Positions 3,643 through 60,666 of a stretch of 64,000 nucleotides of DNA are shown here, one piece after another. This DNA is from Methanoculleus marisnigri JR1 (GTDB taxonomy: Archaea > Halobacteriota > Methanomicrobia > Methanomicrobiales > Methanoculleaceae). A program made the position numbers and the translations under genes. Each line of letters begins with the position of its first letter. Positions within the stretch are counted from its first letter, which is position 1. The stretch covers positions 1,606,695 through 1,670,694 of the forward strand of contig NC_009051.1 of the NCBI RefSeq assembly GCF_000015825.1. Direction: 5' to 3'. The notes below the pieces were generated by a model, which was given only the letters and a program-made list of their open reading frames with translations, had not been told where the DNA came from and ran no database searches.

Positions 3643-3927
3643 AATCCGGAGTTCGTTTGCGCCTCCCTGCCCGGGACCTTGCCTGATGTCACCGGGCACA
3701 AATGAGGGGGGTAAGCGACTCCAACTGTCTTTCGGGAGACTTATACTTTATCGTGGTGGGGCGGCACCGGGCAGATAAGGAGCATCCCGGATCGGAGGAG
3801 AACTCCAGTCAGCTGCAAAAACAGTGAATGCGCCGGGAAGAATCAAATGTTATGCAATGGTCGAAATTTCGAACGTAAGTTTACCAGCCTCAACGTTCAC
3901 TCGTGTCCCGGCACATGCCGGGCACTG
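3643..3927. other. Non-coding gap in the glycan locus, with a small inverted repeat
   Basis: No convincing gene. A short inverted repeat, CCCGGCA followed after two bases by TGCCGGG, lies at about 3906-3921 immediately after the wecB stop and may act as a transcript end. The A/T-rich stretch near 3740-3756 contains, on the minus strand, a TATA-like GATAAAGTATAAG that could be the promoter for the glycosyltransferase starting at 3642. Confidence 0.35.
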
Positions 3928-5007
3928 TTATCCAGATCGGGCATACTGAGACCGGGCAAGGATCTTCCCGATCAGAACACTGGCGTTTCCATTCCCAAAT
4001 ATCTCTTTCTGCCTCGATCCGGGTGAAAAATGCCGAATAGCATCGACAATCTTCTCCCGTCCCGCCCCCACGAGCACGTTCCACCCCGCCTCGACCGTCT
4101 CGACCCATTCGGTGTTCTCCCGGAGAGTGATGCAGGGGACGCCGAGCATGTAGGCCTCCTTCTGGACACCGCCCGAGTCGGTGAGAATCTTTTCCGCGTG
4201 CGCCATCAGGCGGATCATGTCGAGGTAGCCGAGCGGCTCGATGAGCCGGACGTTCTCCGGCATCTCCGCAAGGACCCCGTATTCGCCGAGGCACTTCCTC
4301 GTCCGGGGATGAACCGGGAAGACGGCCGGCTTTCCGGCCTCTGCGAGAGCACCGAGGATAGCGGCCATGTTTTCACGATCATCGGTGTTCGAGGGGCGGT
4401 GGACGGTGACGACGAGGTAGCCCCCGGGTTCGACCCCGACGTCCTCGAGGATCCGGGAGCGTTCTTCCGCGATCCCACGGTTGTAGTTCATCGCATCGAC
4501 CATCACGTCCCCGACGAGGTGGACGCCCTTCGTGATCCCCTCGGCCCCAAGGTTCCTAATGGCCGTCTCCGTCGGGCAGAAGAGGAGGTCCGATGCGTGA
4601 TCGGTGAGCACCCGGTTCACCTCCTCGGGCATCCCCCGGTCGAAACTCCGGAGCCCCGCCTCGATGTGCGCCACCGGCACGTGGAGTTTCGCGGCCGCAA
4701 GTGCGCCCGCGAGGGTGGAGTTCGTGTCGCCGTAGACCAGGACGACATCGGGCTTCTCCTTTTCGAGAACGTCCTCGATCGCCCCGAGCATCGCCCCGGT
4801 CTGGCGGCCGTGGGTCCCGGAGCCGATGCCGAGGTTGTAGTCGGGCTTCGGGATAGCGAGTTCCTCGAAGAAGACCTCCGACATGCCGTGGTCGTAGTGT
4901 TGGCCGGTGTGGATGAGGATCTCCTCGTGCTCGTTCCTGAGTTCCCGGGAGACGGGAGCGCACTTGATGAACTGGGGCCGGGCGCCGACGATCGATGCGA
5001 TTTTCAT
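3928..5007 (-). CDS. wecB: UDP-N-acetylglucosamine 2-epimerase (non-hydrolysing)
   Basis: 359 residues, normal for the family. The N-terminus MKIASIVGARPQFIKCAPVS is diagnostic, followed by HTGQHYDHGMSEVFF, VLVYGDTNSTLAG, HIEAGLRSFDRGMPEEVNR and, near residue 280, DSGGVQKEAYMLGVP with the conserved TLRENTEW. These form the GT-B active site that converts UDP-GlcNAc to UDP-ManNAc. It ends the run of minus-strand genes whose upstream member (stop three bases before this start) is a UDP-hexosamine dehydrogenase, so the pair most simply makes UDP-ManNAcA for S-layer or other surface glycans. The reaction is well supported; the final sugar is inference. Confidence 0.95.
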   Translation of the reverse strand: MKIASIVGARPQFIKCAPVSRELRNEHEEILIHTGQHYDHGMSEVFFEELAIPKPDYNLGIGSGTHGRQTGAMLGAIEDVLEKEKPDVVLVYGDTNSTLAGALAAAKLHVPVAHIEAGLRSFDRGMPEEVNRVLTDHASDLLFCPTETAIRNLGAEGITKGVHLVGDVMVDAMNYNRGIAEERSRILEDVGVEPGGYLVVTVHRPSNTDDRENMAAILGALAEAGKPAVFPVHPRTRKCLGEYGVLAEMPENVRLIEPLGYLDMIRLMAHAEKILTDSGGVQKEAYMLGVPCITLRENTEWVETVEAGWNVLVGAGREKIVDAIRHFSPGSRQKEIFGNGNASVLIGKILARSQYARSG

Positions 5008-5009
5008 GG

Positions 5010-6443
5010 TTACTCCCGGATCGGATGATTGTTCCTGTCGCCGCGACCGATGCCTTTGTAGACGAAGCCCGCCCGGATGAACGCATCCGGATCGACGGCG
5101 TTCCTGCCGTCGACGATCACCGGGTGCTCTTTCCCCGACAACTCCTTCACCCGCGCCGGATCGAGGGAAGCATAGTGGTGGTGGCCGGTGAAGATGGTGA
5201 CGACGTCCGCGCCTTCAAGAGCCGCGTCCAGGTCGTGCGAAACCTCTATCCCCGGATACCTTTCCACGAACGGGTCGTGGACCCGGACCTTCGCTCCGGC
5301 CTCTTCCATCGCCGCGAGGTAGGGCTCCGCGGGGGTGTTTCTGGTATCGTCGGAGTTCTGGATGAACGCCCATCCGAGGAGCGCGACCGTTGCACCCTCC
5401 GGGGACTTATCCGTCCGCTTGAGCCCCTCGAGGGTCAGGTGGACCATGTGCCGGGGCATGAACTCGTTGATCATCCGTGCGACGCCGAAGATCGACTCGG
5501 CCCCGTGTGGGTACCAGAGGTCGCCGCCGAGGACCTGTGCGCCCCGCTCGAGGTGCCAGGAGTCCTTCGTGAGACAGTGGCCGCCGACCCCGGCACCCGG
5601 CCAGAGGATTGCCCGGGTGATCCCCTCACCCTTGAGGGAGTCGATCCCGGCCCGGACGTCGTAGACGTTGACGCCCATTGCCTCGCAGTGCAGCGCCAGC
5701 TGGTTTGCGGCGGCGATCTGGAGGTCCCGGAAGGCATTCTCTGCGGTCTTCGTCACCTCGGCCGCGGTCGCGGTCATCGGGATGATCTTTCCCGTCGTGA
5801 GGACTGGGCGGTAGAGTTCGATCGCCCGCGCCGTCGAGACGTCGTCGATCCCACCGACGATCCGGTCGTGCTCCCGGATGTTTCTGAGCAGCCGCCCGAC
5901 CATCACCCGCTCGGGGGCGTGCGCGAGGCAGAACTCTTCGCCGGCGGTGAGCCCGGACTCTTCTTCCAGGATCTTGCGGGCCATCCCGGCAGTCGTGCCG
6001 GGAGTGACGGTCGACTCGAGCACCACGAGCGTGCCCTCCGAGAGGTTCCTTCCCGTCTGCCGGAGCCCCTCGGTCAGGGCCGAGAAATCGGGGATGAGGT
6101 CTTTTGGATCCTTAAACGGTGTCTGGATGGCGAGCGTCACCGCGTCGCACTCCGCAACCCCGGAGAAGTCCGGGGTGCACCGGAACTTACCCGCATCGAC
6201 GACCTTAGCGAGCAACTCTTCGAGCCCGGGCTCCTCGCCCTTGAGCGGCGACTCCCCCCGGTTCAGCATGGCTATCTTGTAGCCGGAGGACGGGGAGTCT
6301 CGCTGGAATCCGCGGACGAACTCGAATTCGGGGGCGTCCGCAAAGAGCGCCGCGGCGGGAATGCCGACGTAGCCCATGCCGACAACACCGACCTTCCTGA
6401 TCGGCCCAATTCCATCGATGATCGACTGTAACCTGCTGCTCAT
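5010..6443 (-). CDS. wecC: UDP-N-acetyl-D-mannosamine / nucleotide-sugar 6-dehydrogenase
   Basis: About 477 residues from ATG 6443; a GTG at 6455 is also open, but the purine-rich GAGGGGTGG sits at the right distance for the ATG. It has the N-terminal Rossmann fold GVVGMGYVGIPAAALFAD, a central helix with TAAEVTKTAENAFRDLQIAAANQLAL, and the catalytic-cysteine stretch GAGVGGHCLTKDSWHL, as in WecC/WbpA enzymes. They oxidise C6 of a UDP-hexosamine twice with NAD to give the uronic acid. Together with wecB directly downstream, UDP-ManNAc to UDP-ManNAcA is the likely step; UDP-GlcNAc as substrate is the alternative. Confidence 0.9.
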   Translation of the reverse strand: MSSRLQSIIDGIGPIRKVGVVGMGYVGIPAAALFADAPEFEFVRGFQRDSPSSGYKIAMLNRGESPLKGEEPGLEELLAKVVDAGKFRCTPDFSGVAECDAVTLAIQTPFKDPKDLIPDFSALTEGLRQTGRNLSEGTLVVLESTVTPGTTAGMARKILEEESGLTAGEEFCLAHAPERVMVGRLLRNIREHDRIVGGIDDVSTARAIELYRPVLTTGKIIPMTATAAEVTKTAENAFRDLQIAAANQLALHCEAMGVNVYDVRAGIDSLKGEGITRAILWPGAGVGGHCLTKDSWHLERGAQVLGGDLWYPHGAESIFGVARMINEFMPRHMVHLTLEGLKRTDKSPEGATVALLGWAFIQNSDDTRNTPAEPYLAAMEEAGAKVRVHDPFVERYPGIEVSHDLDAALEGADVVTIFTGHHHYASLDPARVKELSGKEHPVIVDGRNAVDPDAFIRAGFVYKGIGRGDRNNHPIRE

Positions 6444-48324: not shown

Positions 48325-48992
48325 CGGGACACCCTCCAGAGCGTGGGGTAAAAGCACGTCTCCTCGAGCGCGGAGAAGACCTCCTCCGGCGTGCCGTGGT
48401 GCCTGACGCGGCCGTTCTCCATAAAGAGAACGCAGTCCGCGGTAGCCGCAACGTCCATCGACTGCGTGCACCAGAGCACGTGGGCTGCGGCGCTCTCCCG
48501 CACCACGCGCTGGACGCGCTCCGCGGTCACGCCGTCCAGGTGCGAATCAGCCTCGTCCAGGACGAGCACCTCGGGGTCGCCGGCGCAGGCGGCGGCCAGC
48601 GCAACGAGCGCCTTCTCCCCCCCGGAGAGGGCCGCGACCTTCTTGCCGAGGAGGTGGCGGATGCCGACAACCTCCGCAACCGCCCGGACCGCCCTGTCCG
48701 TCTCGGGGCAGGGGCGGTGGCGGAACCGGGGCGTCGATGCGATCTCGTCGTAGACCCGGGAGAAGAGGAGCGTCCGGTCGGGGAACTCCCCCACCCACCC
48801 GACCTTCACGGCCGACGGCGGACGGTCGAGGAGCAGGACAGATCCTGCTTCGGGCTCCTCGATCCCGGAGCAGACCGAGAGCAACGTCGTCTTGCCGCTC
48901 CCGTTCGGCCCGATAACGGCGATATGGCGCGCGTCCACCGCAAGGCCGGGGATGTCGAGCAGCCGGTGCCGGAGATCGGCGATACGGATCAT
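48321..48992 (-). CDS. ecfA1: ECF transporter ATPase EcfA1
   Basis: 223 residues from ATG 48992, overlapping the bioY stop as ATGA. Walker A IAVIGPNGSGKTTLLSVCSG, signature VAALSGGEKALVALAAACAG and Walker B PEVLVLDEADSHLDGVTAER are visible. Between strands is VGWVGEFPDRTLLFSRVYDE, the ECF Q-loop. DEAD in place of the usual DEP(T/F) after Walker B is a mild variation. Second ATPase of the BioY module. Confidence 0.88.
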   Translation of the reverse strand: MIRIADLRHRLLDIPGLAVDARHIAVIGPNGSGKTTLLSVCSGIEEPEAGSVLLLDRPPSAVKVGWVGEFPDRTLLFSRVYDEIASTPRFRHRPCPETDRAVRAVAEVVGIRHLLGKKVAALSGGEKALVALAAACAGDPEVLVLDEADSHLDGVTAERVQRVVRESAAAHVLWCTQSMDVAATADCVLFMENGRVRHHGTPEEVFSALEETCFYPTLWRVSR

Positions 48993-49498
48993 GCCACCCG
49001 CTTCCCTATGGCGTATGCGGCTGCAGCCTTCACGGCATCGCCGATGATAAACGGGGCGACGCCGAGCAGGACCGCCTGAAGAAGCGGGATCGAAGCCGAA
49101 TATGAAAGCCATACGGCGCCAGCCAGGAGATAGATTGCACAGGCCGCGATCAGCCCTGTGATCCGCGATGCCGGCGATTCGTGTTCGTAGGCGATCCCGG
49201 CGACGAGGGCGGCGGGGATGAAGCCGATCAGGAACCCGCCCGTGGGGCCGAGAAGCACCCCGAGGCCCGCCGTGCCGTTGTGATAGACCGGGAGGCCCGC
49301 CGCCCCGAGGAGGACGTAGAGGGCGACGGGGATCGCCCCGTAGCGCTTCATGACGATCCCGGATAACAGGACGAAAAGCGTCTGGAGCGTGAGCGGTACC
49401 GGGGGGAGTGGGATGGAGATCCAGCTCCCGGCGGCGATCAGCGCGATGAACGTACCGCTGTAGGCGAGGATCCGGGCTCGGTGCATCATGTCAACCAT
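48989..49498 (-). CDS. bioY: Biotin substrate-binding component BioY
   Basis: 169 residues from ATG 49498; in-frame ATGs at 49489 and 49486 are alternatives, and the first lies inside the operator, so a later start is quite possible. Six membrane spans; ISIPLPPVPLTLQTLFVLLSG and GLGVLLGPTGGFLIGFIPAA are the BioY signatures, and GDAVKAAAAYAIG ends the protein. It captures biotin with high affinity. First gene of bioY-ecfA1-ecfA2-ecfT, downstream of birA. Confidence 0.93.
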   Translation of the reverse strand: MVDMMHRARILAYSGTFIALIAAGSWISIPLPPVPLTLQTLFVLLSGIVMKRYGAIPVALYVLLGAAGLPVYHNGTAGLGVLLGPTGGFLIGFIPAALVAGIAYEHESPASRITGLIAACAIYLLAGAVWLSYSASIPLLQAVLLGVAPFIIGDAVKAAAAYAIGKRVA

Positions 49499-49519
49499 TT
49501 TATTTTGGATGGTTGACAA
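49489..49519. promoter_or_regulatory. BirA-type biotin operator at the bioY start
   Basis: On the minus strand TTGTCAACC, 14 bases, GGTTGACA: an inverted repeat whose central 10 bp arms are perfect (TGTCAACCAT / ATGGTTGACA). This closely resembles the known BirA box (TTGTAAACC-N15-GGTTTACAA). The BirA encoded upstream keeps a DNA-binding domain, so repression of bioY by biotin-loaded BirA is likely. Confidence 0.72.
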
Positions 49520-49631
49520 GAAAAATCCTGCTGATGCCTGACGAACTGCATCACATAACCCCGGGAGATTTCCGTTCCGATGGGGAGACCTTCTCGCCGA
49601 TCCAAAAAGTGTATGGGTGTTGACCGGCAGG

Positions 49632-50618
49632 TCAGAGCTGGAAACAGTCGCCGGCGATGACCCGCTCTATCTTTCCGTTGTCTTTCCGGATGATCAGGGC
49701 ACCGTGCTCGTCGATATCGATGGCCTCTCCCGAGAAGGTCTTGTTGACGGTCTTGATGGCCACCCGGTGATCGAGCGTCCGGGAGAGGCTCTTCCACTCG
49801 CGGATGATGGAGTCGTACTCGCCGTCCTCGAGCTGCTGGTAGCGCAGTTCGAACTCCCGCAGAACCCGGGCAAGGAGCGCCACCCGGTCGACCTCGCGGC
49901 CGACCTCGGCCTGGAGCGTGGTCACGGTCTCCCGCAGGTTCGAGGAGAGGTCGTCGAGAGAGACGTTCGCATCGATCCCAAGCCCCAGGAGGGCGTAGTG
50001 CACGGTATCCGCCTCGGCAGCGAGTTCCAGGAGCAGACCGGCGACCTTCTTGTCTCCGATAAAGATGTCGTTGGGCCACTTGATGAGCGCACTGATGTCG
50101 TACTCCTTGCGGATGGCACGGGCAATCGCGACCGACCCGGCCATGGTGATCATGAAAAGGTGGTCGAGCGGGATCTTCGGTTTCAAAAGGATGGTGGCCC
50201 AGATGCCGCCGGCAGGAGAGACCCAGGCGCGTCCGAGCCGTCCCACCCCCCCGGTCTGCTCCTCGGCGATGATCACCATGCCGTGCAGGTTTTCAGGATC
50301 GGTCTCGGCGGCAAGCTTCTTCGCGACCCAGCCCGTGGAGGCGGTGCTGTCGAACTGACGGATCTGCCGCCCGATGACCCGGGTACGGAGCATCTTGTTG
50401 ATCTCGTAGGGGAGGAGCCGGTCGGTCTTCGTCTCGAGGTGGTAACCTTCCACCCGGGACGACGATATCCCGTATCCCAGCCTCCGGAGTTCGCGTATCT
50501 GCTTCCAGACGGCCGACCGGGTGATGCCCAGCTGCTCCGCAATCCGTTCCCCTGATACCGGGCCGGGCGATTCTTCGAGAATCTTCAATACGTTGATTGC
50601 CGTATCCTTCATGTCCAT
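49632..50618 (-). CDS. birA: Bifunctional biotin-protein ligase and repressor BirA
   Basis: 328 residues from ATG 50618, which forms TAATG with the DUF2111 stop. Residues 5-65 are a winged helix (VSGERIAEQLGITRSAVWKQ, RRLGYGISSSRVEGYHL), and the catalytic domain follows with VGRLGRAWVSPAGGIWATIL (biotin and AMP loop), IKWPNDIFIGDKKVAGLLLE and LGLGIDANVS. The C-terminal SH3-like domain ends IERVIAGDCFQL. It biotinylates PycB and, through the winged helix, should bind the operator at 49489-49519. Confidence 0.94.
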   Translation of the reverse strand: MDMKDTAINVLKILEESPGPVSGERIAEQLGITRSAVWKQIRELRRLGYGISSSRVEGYHLETKTDRLLPYEINKMLRTRVIGRQIRQFDSTASTGWVAKKLAAETDPENLHGMVIIAEEQTGGVGRLGRAWVSPAGGIWATILLKPKIPLDHLFMITMAGSVAIARAIRKEYDISALIKWPNDIFIGDKKVAGLLLELAAEADTVHYALLGLGIDANVSLDDLSSNLRETVTTLQAEVGREVDRVALLARVLREFELRYQQLEDGEYDSIIREWKSLSRTLDHRVAIKTVNKTFSGEAIDIDEHGALIIRKDNGKIERVIAGDCFQL

Positions 50619-51061
50619 TACCTTTTCGCTGCAGGCGACTCGCTCGGGAGCGGACACGGGTCCTCGCCGCAGACCTGCCTCCGGATCACCGTGTTCTGCT
50701 CCATGAAACCCGCGAGATCAAAGATGCCGGTCACATCGACGATGCCGATTGCGCCGATGGCTCTGCCTTCTTCGTCCCTTACCGGCGCCACCACCACCGG
50801 GATCCCTTTGTACGGGCCACTCGGGGGCCTGACCCTCAACGTAGCGTTCTCCTCGAGGACTTCCTCGAGGATGGGGCCCGTATAGCCCTCGTCGACGACC
50901 TTCCCGTCCTCGACCCTGACTCCGGGGTGGTCGCGGGACCGTGCCGTAACGGGCAACCGACCAAGCAGATCGTGGATACATACCACGATCGGGGCGAGAT
51001 CGCGCGCGCTCGAAGACGCAGAGACGATATATTGATCCATGGCCGTATCCATACTGTTCAT
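50618..51061 (-). CDS. DUF2111 family protein
   Basis: About 147 residues from ATG 51061 (a GTG lies one codon before). SSARDLAPIVVCIHDLLGRL leads into a PAS-like body: GVRVEDGKVVDEGYTGPILE, PYKGIPVVVAPVRDEEGRAI and GAIGIVDVTGIFDLAGFMEQ, the DUF2111 features known from methanogens. The GAIG-IVDVT segment resembles ligand sensors. Function unknown. It overlaps birA (TAATG) and follows the GATase-like gene by about ten bases, so it sits inside the rtcB-birA gene string. Confidence 0.8.
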   Translation of the reverse strand: MNSMDTAMDQYIVSASSSARDLAPIVVCIHDLLGRLPVTARSRDHPGVRVEDGKVVDEGYTGPILEEVLEENATLRVRPPSGPYKGIPVVVAPVRDEEGRAIGAIGIVDVTGIFDLAGFMEQNTVIRRQVCGEDPCPLPSESPAAKR

Positions 51062-54601: not shown

Positions 54602-55456
54602 ATGGAATTTGCCAGATACGACGTCAACAAATACTCTCCGCGGCAGATGGTAGCGCTGCCCCTCGTTCTCCTCCTCCTTGCCGGGTTGCTGCTGGGCTAC
54701 ACCACGCTCGCCACCGGCCTGCCCATAACCCCGGGCATCGACTTTGCGGGAGGTACGGCGGTCACCGTCTTCACATCCGACAGCAGAGAGACGGTAGAGG
54801 CGACCTTTGCCGGGTATCCGGTGTTGTCGGTGGGTGAAGGGATCGGCAATGGAAAGTACATCCAGTTCGGCCCGATGGAAGACGCCCGGTACCAGAGTCT
54901 TGTTGGGCTCATCAACGAGAGGTATCCCGATGCGAAGATAGACCAGATCGGCGAGACGTTCGGAAAGACGCTCCAGGGTCAGGCCTTCCTCGCCCTGATC
55001 TTCTCGTTCATCGGCATGGCCGTCGTGGTCATGATTGCGTTCCGCAATCTCGTGCCGGCGGGTGCGGTCGTCCTCTCCGCCTTCGCCGACATCGCCATCA
55101 CCGCCGGGATCATGCAGATCATCGGTATTCCGCTCTCCCTCGGGACGACGGCGGCCCTGCTGATGCTGATCGGTTACTCCGTCGACAGTGACATCCTGCT
55201 GACCACGCGCCTCCTGAAGCGCAAGGGGAAACTCGAAGAAAAACTCTCCGGTGCGTTCAGGACCGGGATCATCATGACGACCACGACGCTCATGGCCATC
55301 GCCGCGATGTGGGTCGTCGCTACGGCGGGACAGATTCAGATCATCGCCGAGATTGCAAGCGTCCTCATCATCGGCCTCTTTGTGGACATAATGAACACCT
55401 GGATGCTGAACGCCGGCATTCTGAAGGAGTACGTCCTCCGGGGGAACAAGAAATGA
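54602..55456 (+). CDS. secF: Protein-export membrane protein SecF
   Basis: 284 residues with six membrane spans. PITPGIDFAGGTAVTVFTSD is the periplasmic-domain entry motif (G-x-D-F-x-GGT), ALIFSFIGMAVVVMIAFRNL opens the second half, and GYSVDSDILLTTRLLKRKGK is the conserved SecF signature between spans 4 and 5. With SecD it drives late steps of translocation using the ion gradient. In archaea secF precedes secD, as here. The stop overlaps secD (ATGA). Confidence 0.95.
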   Translation: MEFARYDVNKYSPRQMVALPLVLLLLAGLLLGYTTLATGLPITPGIDFAGGTAVTVFTSDSRETVEATFAGYPVLSVGEGIGNGKYIQFGPMEDARYQSLVGLINERYPDAKIDQIGETFGKTLQGQAFLALIFSFIGMAVVVMIAFRNLVPAGAVVLSAFADIAITAGIMQIIGIPLSLGTTAALLMLIGYSVDSDILLTTRLLKRKGKLEEKLSGAFRTGIIMTTTTLMAIAAMWVVATAGQIQIIAEIASVLIIGLFVDIMNTWMLNAGILKEYVLRGNKK

Positions 55457-56910
55457 ACGGCGAAACCATCAAGAATCTCGTCAAAGACTGGCGGATCGCC
55501 CTGGTGCTCCTGCTGGTCGTCGGCTCCCTTGTCGGTATCTACCTCGCTCCCCCGAGCCCGGAGAAGGGTATCGAGGGGAACCTCCAGTTCGGCCTCGATC
55601 TCGAGGGCGGTTCGTGGCTGCAGATGGAGTTCCAGTCCGTGGTCGTGGCATTCTCGACCGACGGATCGGTCGGAGACCTCATGGACGACCTGCGGACGGA
55701 TCTCGAGACCGAGGTCATCCGCATCGACGAGAACCACCTCGAGATCCGAAAGAGCGTCACCCGTGCCGACCTCGAACCGATCTTTGCGGAATCGGGCGCC
55801 TCGATCGTAACCCACCAGAAGGGCGTATCCGCGTTCACCGCAGACGAGGTGAAGAGGATCCTGAACGAGAAGGTGAACGCTCTCGGGATGCAGGACGCGA
55901 GGATCAACCTGCTCACCCCGACCGGAAGCGAGTTCCCGCAGTACGTGCGGATAGAACTCGCCGGCGTGGATATGGCGACGGCGCAGGATATCGTCGGCCA
56001 GCAGGGCCTGTTCGAGATACGGGTCCAGACCACAGGGAACGAGACCGAGCACGTCCTCTACGGTGACCAGATCACCAGCGTCGGCGTGCCGCAGAGGGAT
56101 TCCGACGGCACATGGAGCGTCGGGTTCTCGTTCACCGAGACGGGCGCAGAGGCCTTCCGTGAGGCCGCCATCGAATCCGGAGCGGTCGACAACCCGGACG
56201 CCCACCACCTCGTGATGATCCTCGACAACGAGACCGTCTACAGCGCCCCCCTCGCCGGAAACCTTGTGAGCGAGCTCCGGGCGGGCCCGGTCAGGTCGCT
56301 CTCCGCAAGCACCGGCACCGGCGACGCCGGGCTCGAGGATGCGATGACGCTCCAGATCCACCTGCGGGCCGGCGCACTGCCGGTGCAGGTGGATATCGTC
56401 GGGTCCGGTTCCGTCCCGGCGGCGCTTGGCGAACAGTTCAAGATGACGGTCGCCATCGCCGGGCTGCTCGCGCTGCTCACCGTAGCGGTCGTCGTCTACT
56501 ACCGTTACCGCGAGCCCTCGATCGTGATCCCGATGGTCGCGATCAACCTTGCAGAGATCATCATCCTGCTCGGGATTGCCCGGTTCATCATCCAGCTCGA
56601 CCTCGCCACCATCGCCGGTCTGATAGCGGTGGTGGGTACCGGCATCGACCAGCTCGTCATCATCACGGACGAGGTTCTCCACGAGGGGCGTGTCCCGTCG
56701 CCGAACCTCTACATGAAACGCTACGGGCGGGCGCTCGGTATCATCGCCGTCGCCGCCGCGACGGTCTTCATCGCCATGCTCCCGCTGGCGCTGATGGATC
56801 TCTCCACTCTTCGGGGCTTTGCAATCATCACCATACTCGGTGTCCTGATCGGCATCCTGGTCACGAGGCCCGCGTACGGAAAGATAATCATGGCGATCCT
56901 CTCAAAATAA
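55453..56910 (+). CDS. secD: Protein-export membrane protein SecD
   Basis: 485 residues from ATG 55453, overlapping the secF stop. GNLQFGLDLEGGSWLQMEFQ is the SecD D1 motif, a long extracellular domain runs from about 50 to 300, and the C-terminal six-span region holds NLAEIIILLGIARFIIQLDL, AVVGTGIDQLVIITDEVLHE (the D-x-x-V/I-I proton or ion motif) and FIAMLPLALMDLSTLRGFAI. Complete in length. Confidence 0.95.
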   Translation: MNGETIKNLVKDWRIALVLLLVVGSLVGIYLAPPSPEKGIEGNLQFGLDLEGGSWLQMEFQSVVVAFSTDGSVGDLMDDLRTDLETEVIRIDENHLEIRKSVTRADLEPIFAESGASIVTHQKGVSAFTADEVKRILNEKVNALGMQDARINLLTPTGSEFPQYVRIELAGVDMATAQDIVGQQGLFEIRVQTTGNETEHVLYGDQITSVGVPQRDSDGTWSVGFSFTETGAEAFREAAIESGAVDNPDAHHLVMILDNETVYSAPLAGNLVSELRAGPVRSLSASTGTGDAGLEDAMTLQIHLRAGALPVQVDIVGSGSVPAALGEQFKMTVAIAGLLALLTVAVVVYYRYREPSIVIPMVAINLAEIIILLGIARFIIQLDLATIAGLIAVVGTGIDQLVIITDEVLHEGRVPSPNLYMKRYGRALGIIAVAAATVFIAMLPLALMDLSTLRGFAIITILGVLIGILVTRPAYGKIIMAILSK

Positions 56911-57289
56911 CATTTTTAGAACCCCATTCTTCGGGTTGTACCTCCCGATGGAGCAACTCTAATCCCGCGAAGCCCAGGATTACTTCTATTCCAATGACGT
57001 GAGCAATAATACAGTACTATTGTACCAATCCTGAGAGTGAGATAAAATTCCGCTCAATTGGATTATATAATAGTATCGCAAAAGAGAGCATGCGGCTGGG
57101 CTGCCTTTGAACCTATTGCTTCATTGCGAGGTTCCAAAGTGGTGCGGTCGCTCGAACCTGAAGATTTCATCAGATCCTCCACGATGCGATGAAATCTCCA
57201 GTACCCGTAGGCAGAATGAGCTTTGTACTTATTGGTAATTAACGTACTCCCTCTTCTGCCTCCTGAAACACTATTCGGAGGAATAGAGA
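56911..57289. other. Intergenic region with a possible gene remnant
   Basis: No intact gene. On the minus strand a 99-codon frame at 57063-57362 contains NKYKAHSAYGYWRFHRIVED and similar residues, which could be a leftover of a transposase-type or other mobile gene, but it overlaps the next gene's start and is not recognised. GGAGGAATAGAG at 57274-57285 is the ribosome site of the following gene. Confidence 0.3.
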
Positions 57290-57820
57290 ATGAACCTAAA
57301 CGTTGGAACACGAGCATGTCTCGTTCTTTTTGCAGCACTGCTTGCATTTGCAGCATGTGCATCGCCGGTGAGCGCCGCCTGGGTATATAAAGGCCAGTAC
57401 ACCGACACTTCCGGGGATAGTTATGGTGACTATGTGATTGTGATACAACAGACCACTAAATACTGGTATGACGCCGATCAGGATCTCTGGAAAGAAGAAA
57501 TTACTGCCGTTGGTGAAGCCAAATATTACAACAACCTGTTTGATACCTGGCAGCCGGCATGGGGGTCGTATGGAGTATACGGTTATGAAGAGGGGTATTT
57601 TACGGTGTGGAGTCAATACGGTGACGAGAGTGTCACCTACACAAGTCCGATTGTCGAAAAGAAACAGATGTACGGATCTGGCACAATTTATTCTGGCATC
57701 AGGTACACAGAGACTAACGGAGACGGAGACGTAGGCGGGGATTATGTTGCCGTCGGTGTTGCCGGATCAGTTACTTCCTCTGTGGGTGCCCAGTGCTGGA
57801 CAAGCTGTGGCACCTACTGA
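57290..57820 (+). CDS. Secreted aromatic- and glycine-rich protein of unknown function
   Basis: 176 residues with GGAGG at good spacing before the ATG. A signal peptide covers about residues 1-29 (VLFAALLAFAACASPVSAAW, cleavage after the ASA/AAW region). The mature part is rich in Tyr, Trp, Gly and Asp and probably beta-structured: KGQYTDTSGDSYGDYVIVIQ, KYWYDADQDLWKEEITAVGE, SYGVYGYEEGYFTVWSQYGD; it ends with two cysteines in CWTSC. Base use is less GC-rich than the core genes. No family recognised; probably displayed or released outside the cell. Confidence 0.65.
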   Translation: MNLNVGTRACLVLFAALLAFAACASPVSAAWVYKGQYTDTSGDSYGDYVIVIQQTTKYWYDADQDLWKEEITAVGEAKYYNNLFDTWQPAWGSYGVYGYEEGYFTVWSQYGDESVTYTSPIVEKKQMYGSGTIYSGIRYTETNGDGDVGGDYVAVGVAGSVTSSVGAQCWTSCGTY

Positions 57821-58442
57821 TGAGTTGGTTGCTTCATCATCTGCTACCAATCACACTTTGGGTGCCGGGTTGCCGGACATGGACTTCGGAGTGAGGATAG
57901 AAACCTGATTTTCCGGAGCCATTCAACCCTCTCCTTTTTATCTTTACAGCAAATGTGCTGTGTTGCAGCATTTCCGGCCAGGGAGAATGATACCAAAGAT
58001 ATTGGTGAAACTAAATTATCATGCCATATTGGGTGCAGTGGCGAAATGAACGGAATGTGTATCGCAAAGTTTGGCAACGAAGCTCAGGCGGTGGCCCGCA
58101 CCGCTTCCCCAAGAATGCATTTGTTGCCGGAAAAAGGACCTCCGATTTTCCAAATGTCAGCCCGTAGCCGGTTAACGGTGACCGTGTCTGCTAATCTCCA
58201 TTCCACTCATTCTCTAACGCATTCGGCACGACTTGGTGATTCAGTGGGCCCGGCGAAACATCGTCCAGTGTCTTGATGCCGGGAGTATGAGCACGATCAT
58301 GGGAACTGTCAGGACACGTCCAAACCAATAACCTCTTATCACAGTGATGCGTGTAATCCACATCGAAAACACGCCCTCTGAAGCCGGATTTCGAAATACA
58401 GCTGTTATGCCACGGTCGTCTGGTGGACAACAACCTTTATTG
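57821..58442. other. Intergenic stretch without a recognised gene
   Basis: About 620 bases. All frames are short or broken. The last part (58434-58441, ACCTTTATTG) may be the TATA region of the thioredoxin operon. Confidence 0.4.
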
Positions 58443-58471
58443 CCCCGTTCACACACAATGTTTGAACGGGG
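58443..58471. promoter_or_regulatory. Perfect 9-bp inverted repeat before thioredoxin-npdG
   Basis: CCCCGTTCA (58443-58451) and TGAACGGGG (58463-58471) are exact inverted repeats separated by 11 bases, ending 9 bases before the thioredoxin ATG. Just upstream is the TATA-like CTTTATTG. The site spans the expected transcription start, so it could be an operator or an mRNA hairpin that covers the ribosome site. Confidence 0.6.
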
Positions 58472-58480
58472 TACAGCCTT

Positions 58481-58768
58481 ATGGGAAAACCGGTTTTAAT
58501 GGACTTTTTCGCCGAGTGGTGCGGTCCGTGCCACCAGCAGACACCGATCATCGATGAGCTCAAAGCAAAGATGGGCGATCAGGTTGATATCCAGAAGATC
58601 GACGTCGGTGTCGACTCCGAAGAGACACGGCAATATGCCGCCAAATACGACATCCAGTTCGTACCTACGCTCGTCATCGAGAAAGACGGGCAACTCGTCC
58701 AGAAGCTGGTAGGCGTCCAGGACCTCGGCACGCTTGAAAGCATCTTAAAACCGCTGGTGGAGCAGTGA
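58481..58768 (+). CDS. Thioredoxin
   Basis: 95 residues. The redox motif is FFAEWCGPCHQQTPIIDELK with C14 and C17 in the classic WCGPC; QFVPTLVIEKDGQLVQKLVG keeps the cis-proline and lysine. Length is near the thioredoxin minimum. Its stop overlaps the npdG GTG (GTGA), so thioredoxin and the F420H2:NADP oxidoreductase are made together. It likely reduces protein disulfides in the cytoplasm. Confidence 0.94.
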   Translation: MGKPVLMDFFAEWCGPCHQQTPIIDELKAKMGDQVDIQKIDVGVDSEETRQYAAKYDIQFVPTLVIEKDGQLVQKLVGVQDLGTLESILKPLVEQ

Positions 58769-59415
58769 AGATCGGGATCGTCGGGGGAACCGGCGACATC
58801 GGGGAAGGCATGGCGCTCCGGCTCTCGCCGAAGTACGACGTGATCGTGGGATCTCGCGAGGAAGTAAAGGCGGTCGCAACCTGCGAGACCTGCCGGGAGA
58901 CCCTGGAGGTGCAGGGAATGGAGTGCAGCCTCGCAGGCGTCACCAACCAGCGTGCGGTCGATGAGGCGGACGTCGTCGTCCTCGCGATACCCTTCAAGCA
59001 CGTGACTCCCACCCTGAACACCCTGACCGGGTTCGAGGACAAGATCGTCGTCAGCCCCGTCAACCCGATCGAGCGGACGAACTACTTCTACTACGCCCCT
59101 CCGCCGGAGGGCTCGGCGGCGATGATGATCAAGGGGATGCTCCCCGAGAGCGCGACCGTATGTGCCGCGTTCAACAACATCGCCGCGAACAAGTGGAAGA
59201 TGCTCGAAGAGGAACTGGACTACTCGGTCGCGGTCTGCTGCGACGACGACGGTGCGAAGCAGAAGGTCATGGAGATCGTCAACAACGTCTCGAACCTCCG
59301 CGCCTATGACGGGGGACCGCTTGCGGCCGCATCCATCGTCGAGAGCGTGACGCCCCTCCTCCTCAACATCGCCCGGTTCAATAAGATGCGGGACGTCGGC
59401 GTGAAGTTTGTATAA
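58765..59415 (+). CDS. npdG: F420H2:NADP oxidoreductase
   Basis: 216 residues starting with GTG 58765. MKIGIVGGTGDIGEGMALRL is the NADP-binding Rossmann start, VIVGSREEVKAVATCETCRE follows with the conserved SRE that binds the 2'-phosphate, and VLAIPFKHVTPTLNTLTGFE, VVSPVNPIERTNYFYYAPPP and AAFNNIAANKWKML are NpdG features. It exchanges hydride between F420H2 and NADP. Coupled to thioredoxin. Confidence 0.93.
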   Translation: MKIGIVGGTGDIGEGMALRLSPKYDVIVGSREEVKAVATCETCRETLEVQGMECSLAGVTNQRAVDEADVVVLAIPFKHVTPTLNTLTGFEDKIVVSPVNPIERTNYFYYAPPPEGSAAMMIKGMLPESATVCAAFNNIAANKWKMLEEELDYSVAVCCDDDGAKQKVMEIVNNVSNLRAYDGGPLAAASIVESVTPLLLNIARFNKMRDVGVKFV

Positions 59416-59454
59416 TTTTTCCTTTTTTGCCCTAGGAGAGGGTTGGTGGCTCGG

Positions 59455-59960
59455 GATCCGTGCCTAACCCCAGAAGCCGAAGATCTTCGGCACTCGTATT
59501 CATTCTACGAAGATCATCTTAGAACTCGGGAGTTCTGTTTATCACGTTCCCGGGCACAGTTTTCCGGTAGACTGCGCACCTAGCGGTGCTCGAACACCTA
59601 CCCTTGACCTAGAGGCTCACGCCCGTACACCGACTTCCAGTGGATATCGCCGAGAGGGGGGTGGGGACAGGGGAGTGCGAGCGCAGCGAGCTTGAGAAAC
59701 CCGAAGGGTTTCGAGGGGGGAATACTCCCCCCTCCCCACCTGACGGTGGTCGAGCTCCGTTCCTCCGGAACGTCGCACTCCCCGTCAGCCCCTCCCCCAG
59801 GGGCGATATGCGACTGGCCGAAGGGCGGGAGCACGAGCACCGAAGGTGCGCAGCCACCACGGTCCACTGTACCGGGTTTGCTGCGTAAATACTTGGAGCG
59901 GAGTTCGAGTGCCGAAGGCTGCGAGTTGTGCAGTGCGACTGGCCAGAGGCCAGGAGTTCG
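59455..59960. repeat. Hairpin array with conserved linkers (copy 2, both orientations)
   Basis: Same modules as at 37.3-37.5 kb. On the minus strand GAAACCC-TTC-GGGTTTC is flanked by CTC and TCAAGCTC (59688-59715); CTGGCC-TCT-GGCCAG with TCGCAC follows (59939-59953). On the plus strand GCACC-TAGC-GGTGC is at 59576-59589, GCACC-GAA-GGTGC near 59838-59850 and GTTCC-TCC-GGAAC near 59760-59772 with GTCGCACTC. An element end block at 59857-59879 repeats 12912-12934. No gene is credible in 59416-60123; the stretch 59961-60123 shows nothing further. Confidence 0.75.
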
Positions 59961-60123
59961 AGTGCCGAGAACGATGCCTCCCAGGTTTGGCATTTCTACA
60001 ACCCTTTCTTGATTCATACCTGACCGTCCAAACCCATACCGCCACCCCCCCCTCACCGTGCCCCAAGCGGCATGCACATATCCCCGAGCACGCCAAACCA
60101 TTCTGTACGAAAGGGTGCCGAAA

Positions 60124-60666
60124 ATGCTGGATCGGGAGTTCGAACGGATTGGAAAGAGGCTCTTTATGGAAGGGCTCGTCGGAGCGAATTTCGGGAACAT
60201 GAGCGTTCGGGGCGAGGGCGGCTTTAACATCACCCGGTCCGGCGCGTACCTCGACGCGAGGGAGATGCCGGTCTTCGTGCCGGATGCGGGCGACGCCCCG
60301 CGCGAGGCCTCGAGCGAGTACCGGGTCCACCGGGCGGTCTACCGGGAGACGCCCCACTCTACGATCGTCCACGCCCACCCGGTCCACACCGTCGCCGCCT
60401 CGCTCGATACCGACCTCGTCCGGCCGGCCGACAGCGAGGGAGGGGTGCTCTGCCCCGAGATCCCGGTCGTCACCGGGGATCCGGGGACCGACGAGATCGC
60501 AGAGAACGTCGCCCGGGCGCTCCGGGACGGCCATATCGTCATCGTCCGGGGGCACGGGACGTTTGCCGCCGGAAAAACGCTCGACGAGGCGTACATCTAC
60601 ACCTCGATCGCCGAGTACGCCTGCCGGATCCTCTTCTTATCGGGGAGGCTTCGGGGGGTTCTGTAA
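60124..60666 (+). CDS. Class II aldolase (fuculose-1-phosphate aldolase-like)
   Basis: 180 residues from ATG 60124, with GGGTG just before; the frame is open to 60058. GLVGANFGNMSVRGEGGFNI is the substrate-phosphate loop, STIVHAHPVHTVAASLDTDL holds two zinc histidines, and VIVRGHGTFAAGKTLDEAYI the third. Small archaeal homologues (MJ1418 type) cleave fuculose-1-phosphate and supply lactaldehyde for F420 synthesis. That F420 link is plausible here but not shown by context. The 3' end overlaps the convergent GT2 gene by 30 bases. Confidence 0.88.
   Translation: MLDREFERIGKRLFMEGLVGANFGNMSVRGEGGFNITRSGAYLDAREMPVFVPDAGDAPREASSEYRVHRAVYRETPHSTIVHAHPVHTVAASLDTDLVRPADSEGGVLCPEIPVVTGDPGTDEIAENVARALRDGHIVIVRGHGTFAAGKTLDEAYIYTSIAEYACRILFLSGRLRGVL

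What the first reader, a model, noticed from the sequence alone, without database searches (positions are those of the whole stretch)
58443..59415. Thioredoxin-npdG operon behind a perfect palindrome
Seen: CCCCGTTCA-N11-TGAACGGGG spanning the probable transcription start, then thioredoxin and F420H2:NADP oxidoreductase overlapping by GTGA. Known: archaeal thioredoxin systems use NADPH- or F420-dependent reductases. Inference: NpdG supplies NADPH (or the pair interacts directly) for thioredoxin reduction, under one redox-responsive control site.
Basis: partly seen in the sequence, partly recalled or inferred. Interest (0 to 1): 0.52.

Follow-up and report, generated by a model that had tools for sequence, protein, structure and literature searches.

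The report
Thioredoxin promoter hairpin in Methanoculleus
In Methanoculleus methane-producing archaea, the thioredoxin and F420:NADP reductase gene pair carries a conserved mirror-image DNA element between its promoter and start codon that probably hides the ribosome-binding site in run-in RNA, or else binds a repressor.

Summary
In detail: CCCCGTTCA-N11-TGAACGGGG lies at 58443-58471, directly after a TATA-like CTTTATTG and 9 nt before thioredoxin (58481-58768), which overlaps npdG (58765-59415) by 4 nt. By length alone such repeats are not rare in this window; conservation makes it real. All 34 trx loci found in 35 genomes of the genus keep it, 3.5 times less diverged than fourfold sites of trx, and no other exact copy exists in those genomes. 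It is absent from 40 sampled loci of five other families, 29 of which have the trx-npdG pair. The arms really are 13 nt with a 3-nt loop, and the 3' arm carries the Shine-Dalgarno. Pairing is kept by G-U and a few double changes. Best reading (0.42): an RNA hairpin present only in transcripts running in from upstream (secDF), which masks the trx ribosome site; the gene's own transcript should start inside the 3' arm and escape. This is the anatomy of phage T4 gene e. The rival, a DNA operator (0.33), stays open: the element is intact where secD is no longer upstream. A redox regulator is not shown, and MsvR is unlikely. NpdG feeding thioredoxin is plausible but untested.

The parts
58430..58442 (+). 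BRE/TATA-like element ACAACCTTTATTG; TTTAT is followed by the palindrome with fixed spacing in the genus
   Evidence: a TTTAT box at a similar distance also precedes trx in most loci of other families
58443..58455 (+). 5' arm CCCCGTTCACACA
58456..58458 (+). 3-nt loop (CAA here; CAT or CAG in relatives; L022 has a shorter dyad with a 4-nt loop)
58459..58471 (+). 3' arm TGTTTGAACGGGG
58463..58467 (+). predicted transcription start, about 27 nt after the TATA centre, inside the 3' arm (inference)
   Evidence: distance taken from the mapped msvR start of Methanosarcina acetivorans (passage of PMC3729527)
58468..58473 (+). Shine-Dalgarno-like GGGGTA, sequestered when the hairpin forms
58481..58768 (+). 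thioredoxin, 95 aa, WCGPC, lacking the usual first ~14 residues
58765..59415 (+). npdG / Fno, F420H2:NADP oxidoreductase, GTG start overlapping the trx stop
   Evidence: 1jax/1jay E=8.3e-43
55453..56910 (+). secD, directly upstream of trx in most relatives; 1.57 kb away here
56913..58426 (+). insertion between secD and the trx promoter, absent from the closest relative (L005)

Best explanation
The palindrome works mainly as RNA. RNA polymerase that runs in from an upstream gene (ancestrally secDF) transcribes both arms; they fold into a 13-bp hairpin that buries the trx Shine-Dalgarno, so trx is not translated from run-in RNA. Polymerase that starts at the gene's own TATA box begins inside the 3' arm, so its mRNA lacks the 5' arm, has an open Shine-Dalgarno and is translated. 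The pair is thereby uncoupled from its upstream neighbour and answers only to its own promoter. Shown: conserved inverted repeat, its place, the Shine-Dalgarno in its arm, predicted folding. Inferred: start site, run-in transcription, translational effect.
For: Pairing reaches to a 3-nt loop and is kept in 96.3% of cells over 27 distinct rows. Over 11 distinct 29-nt palindromes, G-U pairs 7, A-C pairs 1, other mismatches 6. Double changes: U-A to C-G in 2 rows and C-G to A-U in 1; one pair is G-U, G-C or A-U. A 1-nt deletion near the centre leaves the pairing intact (L022), and the neighbouring genus g3 keeps a hairpin with a different inner stem and loop (L039, L040). Mean unpaired probability of the Shine-Dalgarno over 34 loci: 0.04 with run-in RNA, 0.40 with own-promoter RNA. 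secD lies on the same strand 58-62 nt before trx in 28 of the 34 loci, and 158 nt before it in one. The arrangement TTTATNNCCCC-N17-27-GGGG-N7-12-ATG occurs once in this genome and, over 35 genomes, at 33 trx genes and one other place, so no regulon is seen. In other families a T-run of 5 or more sits at this place in 19 of 28 loci with secD within 1 kb and in 2 of 11 without, as if another device ends run-in RNA there. T4 gene e and I-TevI work this way (passages of PMC3014915 and PMC2988022).
Against: In the window, L013, L015 and L016 secD is not within 1.5 kb upstream, yet the element is intact; the nearest clear upstream gene in L015 is divergent (Ltp lipoprotein) and probably also in L013. 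These losses may be recent, as sister species still have secD. Sequence as well as pairing is conserved: 6 of 13 pairs never vary. The covariation is weak: pairs with double changes were matched by 40 of 500 shuffles, pair types by 405 of 500. The T-run association is confounded by family. No RNA data were available; own-promoter accessibility rests on an assumed start site.
Confidence: 0.42

Rival explanations
1. DNA operator: a dimeric repressor binds the dyad, which covers about -22 to +7 of the predicted start, and keeps polymerase off the trx-npdG promoter; thiol or F420/NADPH state might release it.
For: Dyad centred on the promoter with fixed spacing from the TATA box; strong sequence conservation, 0.085 against 0.299 differences at fourfold sites; kept where the upstream gene differs.
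Against: No second exact copy in 35 genomes; relaxed core found 10 times against 8 for the reversed control; no regulator gene seen beside it in the window; MsvR box absent; symmetry runs to the centre and the inner stem differs in g3, unusual for an operator.
Confidence: 0.33
2. Constitutive leader hairpin: transcription starts upstream of 58443, so every trx mRNA carries the hairpin, which a protein, small RNA or temperature opens.
For: Hairpin of -20 kcal/mol over the Shine-Dalgarno; four genomes share a further 18-nt match just upstream.
Against: The only upstream sequence shared by all is the TATA-like stretch that abuts the arm; no Rfam match.
Confidence: 0.1
3. Hairpin-dependent transcription terminator for the upstream gene.
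For: Follows secD in most relatives.
Against: No T-run after the stem; terminator scan finds none; it lies inside the trx promoter.
Confidence: 0.05
4. By-product: a GGGG Shine-Dalgarno and a C-rich promoter spacer that pair by chance, fixed by shared descent.
For: Inverted repeats of 9 nt are common in this window.
Against: Arms change 3.5 times more slowly than fourfold sites while pairing is retained.
Confidence: 0.1

Closest known systems
Phage T4 gene e, soc and I-TevI hairpins (PMC3014915, PMC2988022, passages read)
   Same: Shine-Dalgarno held in a stem in transcripts from upstream promoters; own promoter lies against the 5' arm so its transcripts lack that arm.
   Different: Phage genes with timing by late promoters and experimental proof; here an archaeal housekeeping gene pair, TATA promoter, no experiment.
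Fold-back protection of transposase genes such as IS10 (recalled; search listing only)
   Same: Run-in transcripts fold and mask the ribosome site.
   Different: Mobile elements in bacteria; the stem comes from the element end.
MsvR boxes of methanogens (PMC3729527, passages read)
   Same: Inverted repeat at promoters of redox genes, redox-sensitive repressor.
   Different: TTCG-N8-CGAA; the trx repeat has TTCA-N11-TGAA and no such box.
Fno/NpdG of Archaeoglobus fulgidus (1jax, 1jay)
   Same: Same family, full-length match.
   Different: Here overlapped by a thioredoxin gene.

Membership tests
NpdG / Fno (TIGR01915) | score over the curated cut-off, full length | tested here: met
   218.7 against 149.8 bits, 1-215 of 216
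Thioredoxin (PF00085) | score over the gathering cut-off and a WCGPC active site | tested here: met
   70.6 against 23.5 bits; WCGPC in the translation
Thioredoxin equivalog TIGR01068 | score over the curated cut-off | tested here: not met
   86.3 against 96.8 bits; profile positions 1-14 missing
Run-in-RNA Shine-Dalgarno hairpin (T4 gene e type) | Shine-Dalgarno inside the 3' arm of a stable stem | tested here: met
Run-in-RNA Shine-Dalgarno hairpin (T4 gene e type) | own transcript starts inside the stem | tested here: inconclusive
   TATA position predicts it; no mapped start
Run-in-RNA Shine-Dalgarno hairpin (T4 gene e type) | transcription enters from upstream | tested here: inconclusive
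   secD 58-62 nt upstream in 28 of 34 loci, not in the window itself
Run-in-RNA Shine-Dalgarno hairpin (T4 gene e type) | translation reduced in long transcripts | not testable with these tools
   needs reporters
MsvR operator | TTCG-N8-CGAA inverted repeat | tested here: not met
   present before msvR (TTCGATACATTACGAA), absent before trx
Known Rfam RNA family | covariance-model match | tested here: not met
   no match with E up to 1 in 57000-60200

The most novel reading that the evidence does not exclude
Methanoculleus carries a chromosomal, archaeal version of the T4 gene e device: a promoter-embedded hairpin, arisen within this family where other Methanomicrobiales have an oligo-T tract, that silences a redox gene pair in run-in transcripts and frees it in its own; the same dyad may double as a DNA operator.
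Probability: 0.38. Interest if true: 0.55.

Novelty: new variant of a known kind. Interest (0 to 1): 0.38.

Why it matters
Archaea pack genes tightly; how neighbouring units are kept apart is poorly known. A short stem that is present in run-in RNA but absent from the gene's own RNA would be a protein-free insulator, testable with a few reporters. It also ties thioredoxin to F420H2:NADP oxidoreductase in a unit kept across much of the order, which bears on which cofactor reduces thioredoxin in these methanogens.

Tried and rejected
MsvR as regulator: rejected on its box. A regulon: strict, relaxed and architecture patterns found no convincing further site. Terminator: none by scan. Rfam: nothing. 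Stability trade-off: G20/T25 and T20/C25 go together in 30 of 32 genus rows on a trx-npdG tree, with 6 changes each, but independent pairs give p = 0.25 and recombination would explain it, so it is not used. Rows dropped: L033 and L037 from that tree as truncated or poor CDS, L053 from the T-run count for short upstream sequence, L022 from the diversity count because of its deletion. The own-promoter accessibility figures for some outgroup loci are unreliable because the script took the wrong TATA (for example L066, L078, L079, L082); only the genus figures are used. Paper searches for Methanoculleus transcription starts and for an archaeal thioredoxin Shine-Dalgarno hairpin returned none; for M. 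marisnigri with thioredoxin 8 listings, none opened.

Full report
WHERE IT IS. The window lies in a 2,478,101-base single-contig genome; this size is that of Methanoculleus marisnigri JR1 as I recall it. Named relatives of the thioredoxin are Methanoculleus, e.g. 98% identity in Methanoculleus sp. MH98A.

THE OBSERVATION. The inverted repeat is at 58443-58471, directly after CTTTATTG and 9 nt before the ATG of a 95-aa thioredoxin. It has 13-nt arms and a 3-nt loop. Thioredoxin and npdG overlap by GTGA and are confirmed by families and solved relatives. Inverted repeats of this size are not rare in the window, so conservation decides.

CONSERVATION OF THE ELEMENT. An orthologue of this thioredoxin was found in 39 of 40 genomes of the family at E up to 1e-10. 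In the 34 loci of the genus, the inverted repeat follows TTTATTG or TTTATTA in every one. Over 35 genus genomes the pattern CCCCRYTCA-N11-TGARYGGGG is matched exactly at the trx gene in 31, with 2 mismatches at trx in 2 (G011, G031), not at all in G029 (one base shorter near the centre, pairing kept), and in G020 only at an unrelated place, where trx was not found. No exact match lies elsewhere; 12 places elsewhere have 2 mismatches. Palindromes differ by 0.085 per site between species, fourfold sites of trx by 0.299 (33 rows, L022 left out). In the rest of the family the two genomes of g3 (one named Methanoculleus sp. FWC-SCC1 by its record) have a stem with a different inner part; L038, L041 and L042 have no comparable stem there. 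Of 40 loci from five other families, which I chose from the 159 genomes searched outside the family so as to span genera, none shows it: leader energies -4.2 to -16.7 kcal/mol against -18.4 to -31.1 in the genus.

CONSERVATION OF THE GENE PAIR. npdG follows trx within 400 nt in 33 of 34 genus loci, 5 of 5 other loci of the family, 20 of 20 in f5, 7 of 7 in f3, 2 of 6 in f2, 0 of 3 in f4 and 0 of 4 in f6. Order-wide, the thioredoxin is found in 177 of 199 genomes and npdG in 190 of 199. Methanoperedens loci with a related thioredoxin show no npdG next to it.

RNA OR DNA. Over 27 distinct rows 96.3% of cells pair; one pair occurs as G-U 17, G-C 9, A-U 1; another as U-A 24, C-G 2 with 1 unpaired; another as C-G 18, A-U 1 with 8 unpaired. 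Counted once per distinct 29-mer, G-U appears 7 times and A-C once, with 6 other mismatches; a DNA dyad has no reason to prefer G-U over A-C. But shuffles match several of the covariation measures, so this is suggestive only. The 3' arm holds GGGGTA, the best match to the 16S tail in the scan; its mean unpaired probability is 0.04 in run-in RNA and 0.40 in RNA from the predicted start (34 loci). The predicted start rests on a TATA centre 27 nt upstream, as mapped for msvR of M. acetivorans (passage).

SURROUNDINGS. secD ends 58-62 nt before trx in 28 of 34 genus loci and 158 nt before it in L028; it was not found in L004, L013, L015, L016 (1.5 kb searched) and L033 (contig end). The window's own gap is an insertion at 56913-58426 relative to L005, which leaves the 54 nt before trx identical up to one substitution. 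In L015 the upstream gene is a divergent Ltp lipoprotein; in L013 the longest upstream ORF is also divergent, without a family. The element is intact in all of these, which favours a DNA site or a more general shield, unless the losses are too recent to matter. In other families a run of 5 or more T follows the TATA box in 19 of 28 loci with secD within 1 kb and 2 of 11 without, p = 0.011 by Fisher, not corrected for descent.

ELECTRON ROUTE. The genome encodes a thioredoxin-reductase-like protein of 315.7 bits, below the curated cut-off of 343.45, with an N-terminal glutaredoxin-like stretch and CAIC (the glutaredoxin likeness is my reading of the sequence), and two ferredoxin:thioredoxin reductase catalytic-chain homologues. 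A review lists NADPH-, F420- and ferredoxin-dependent reductases in archaea and bacteria (passages of PMC7278568), and another lists the F420-dependent type for Methanococcales (passages of PMC8498797). NpdG as source of NADPH for thioredoxin is therefore plausible, not shown.

VERDICT. A real, genus-level cis element on an otherwise ordinary gene pair. It works most like the T4 gene e hairpin; whether it is one depends on start mapping and reporters.

Noticed in passing
window 49487-49520: Palindrome TGTCAACCAT-N10-ATGGTTGACA between a BirA-type biotin ligase/repressor (49632-50657 -) and bioY (about 48989-49519 -); it resembles the BirA operator as I recall it (TTGTAAACC-N14/15-GGTTTACAA).
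   Followed up: partly
window 56913-58426: Insertion between secD and the trx promoter relative to the closest relative; it holds a 176-aa probably secreted protein (57290-57820 +) without a Pfam family.
   Followed up: partly
L092 (G000:C1:150500-160500), about 3732-5012: Thioredoxin-reductase-like flavoprotein with an N-terminal glutaredoxin-like stretch.
   Followed up: no
L013, L015, L016, L028 upstream of trx: Four genomes share a similar stretch just upstream of the trx TATA box (AAAACRCTCWGTYRGCHG), found exactly nowhere else in 35 genomes, although their further upstream context differs.
   Followed up: partly
L004-L036, palindrome positions 20 and 25: Two 3'-arm alleles (T20/C25 and G20/T25) alternate between species with about 6 changes each; epistasis or recombination.
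   Followed up: partly
window 59640-59990: GC-rich intergenic stretch with repeated-looking segments between npdG and a class II aldolase gene.
   Followed up: no
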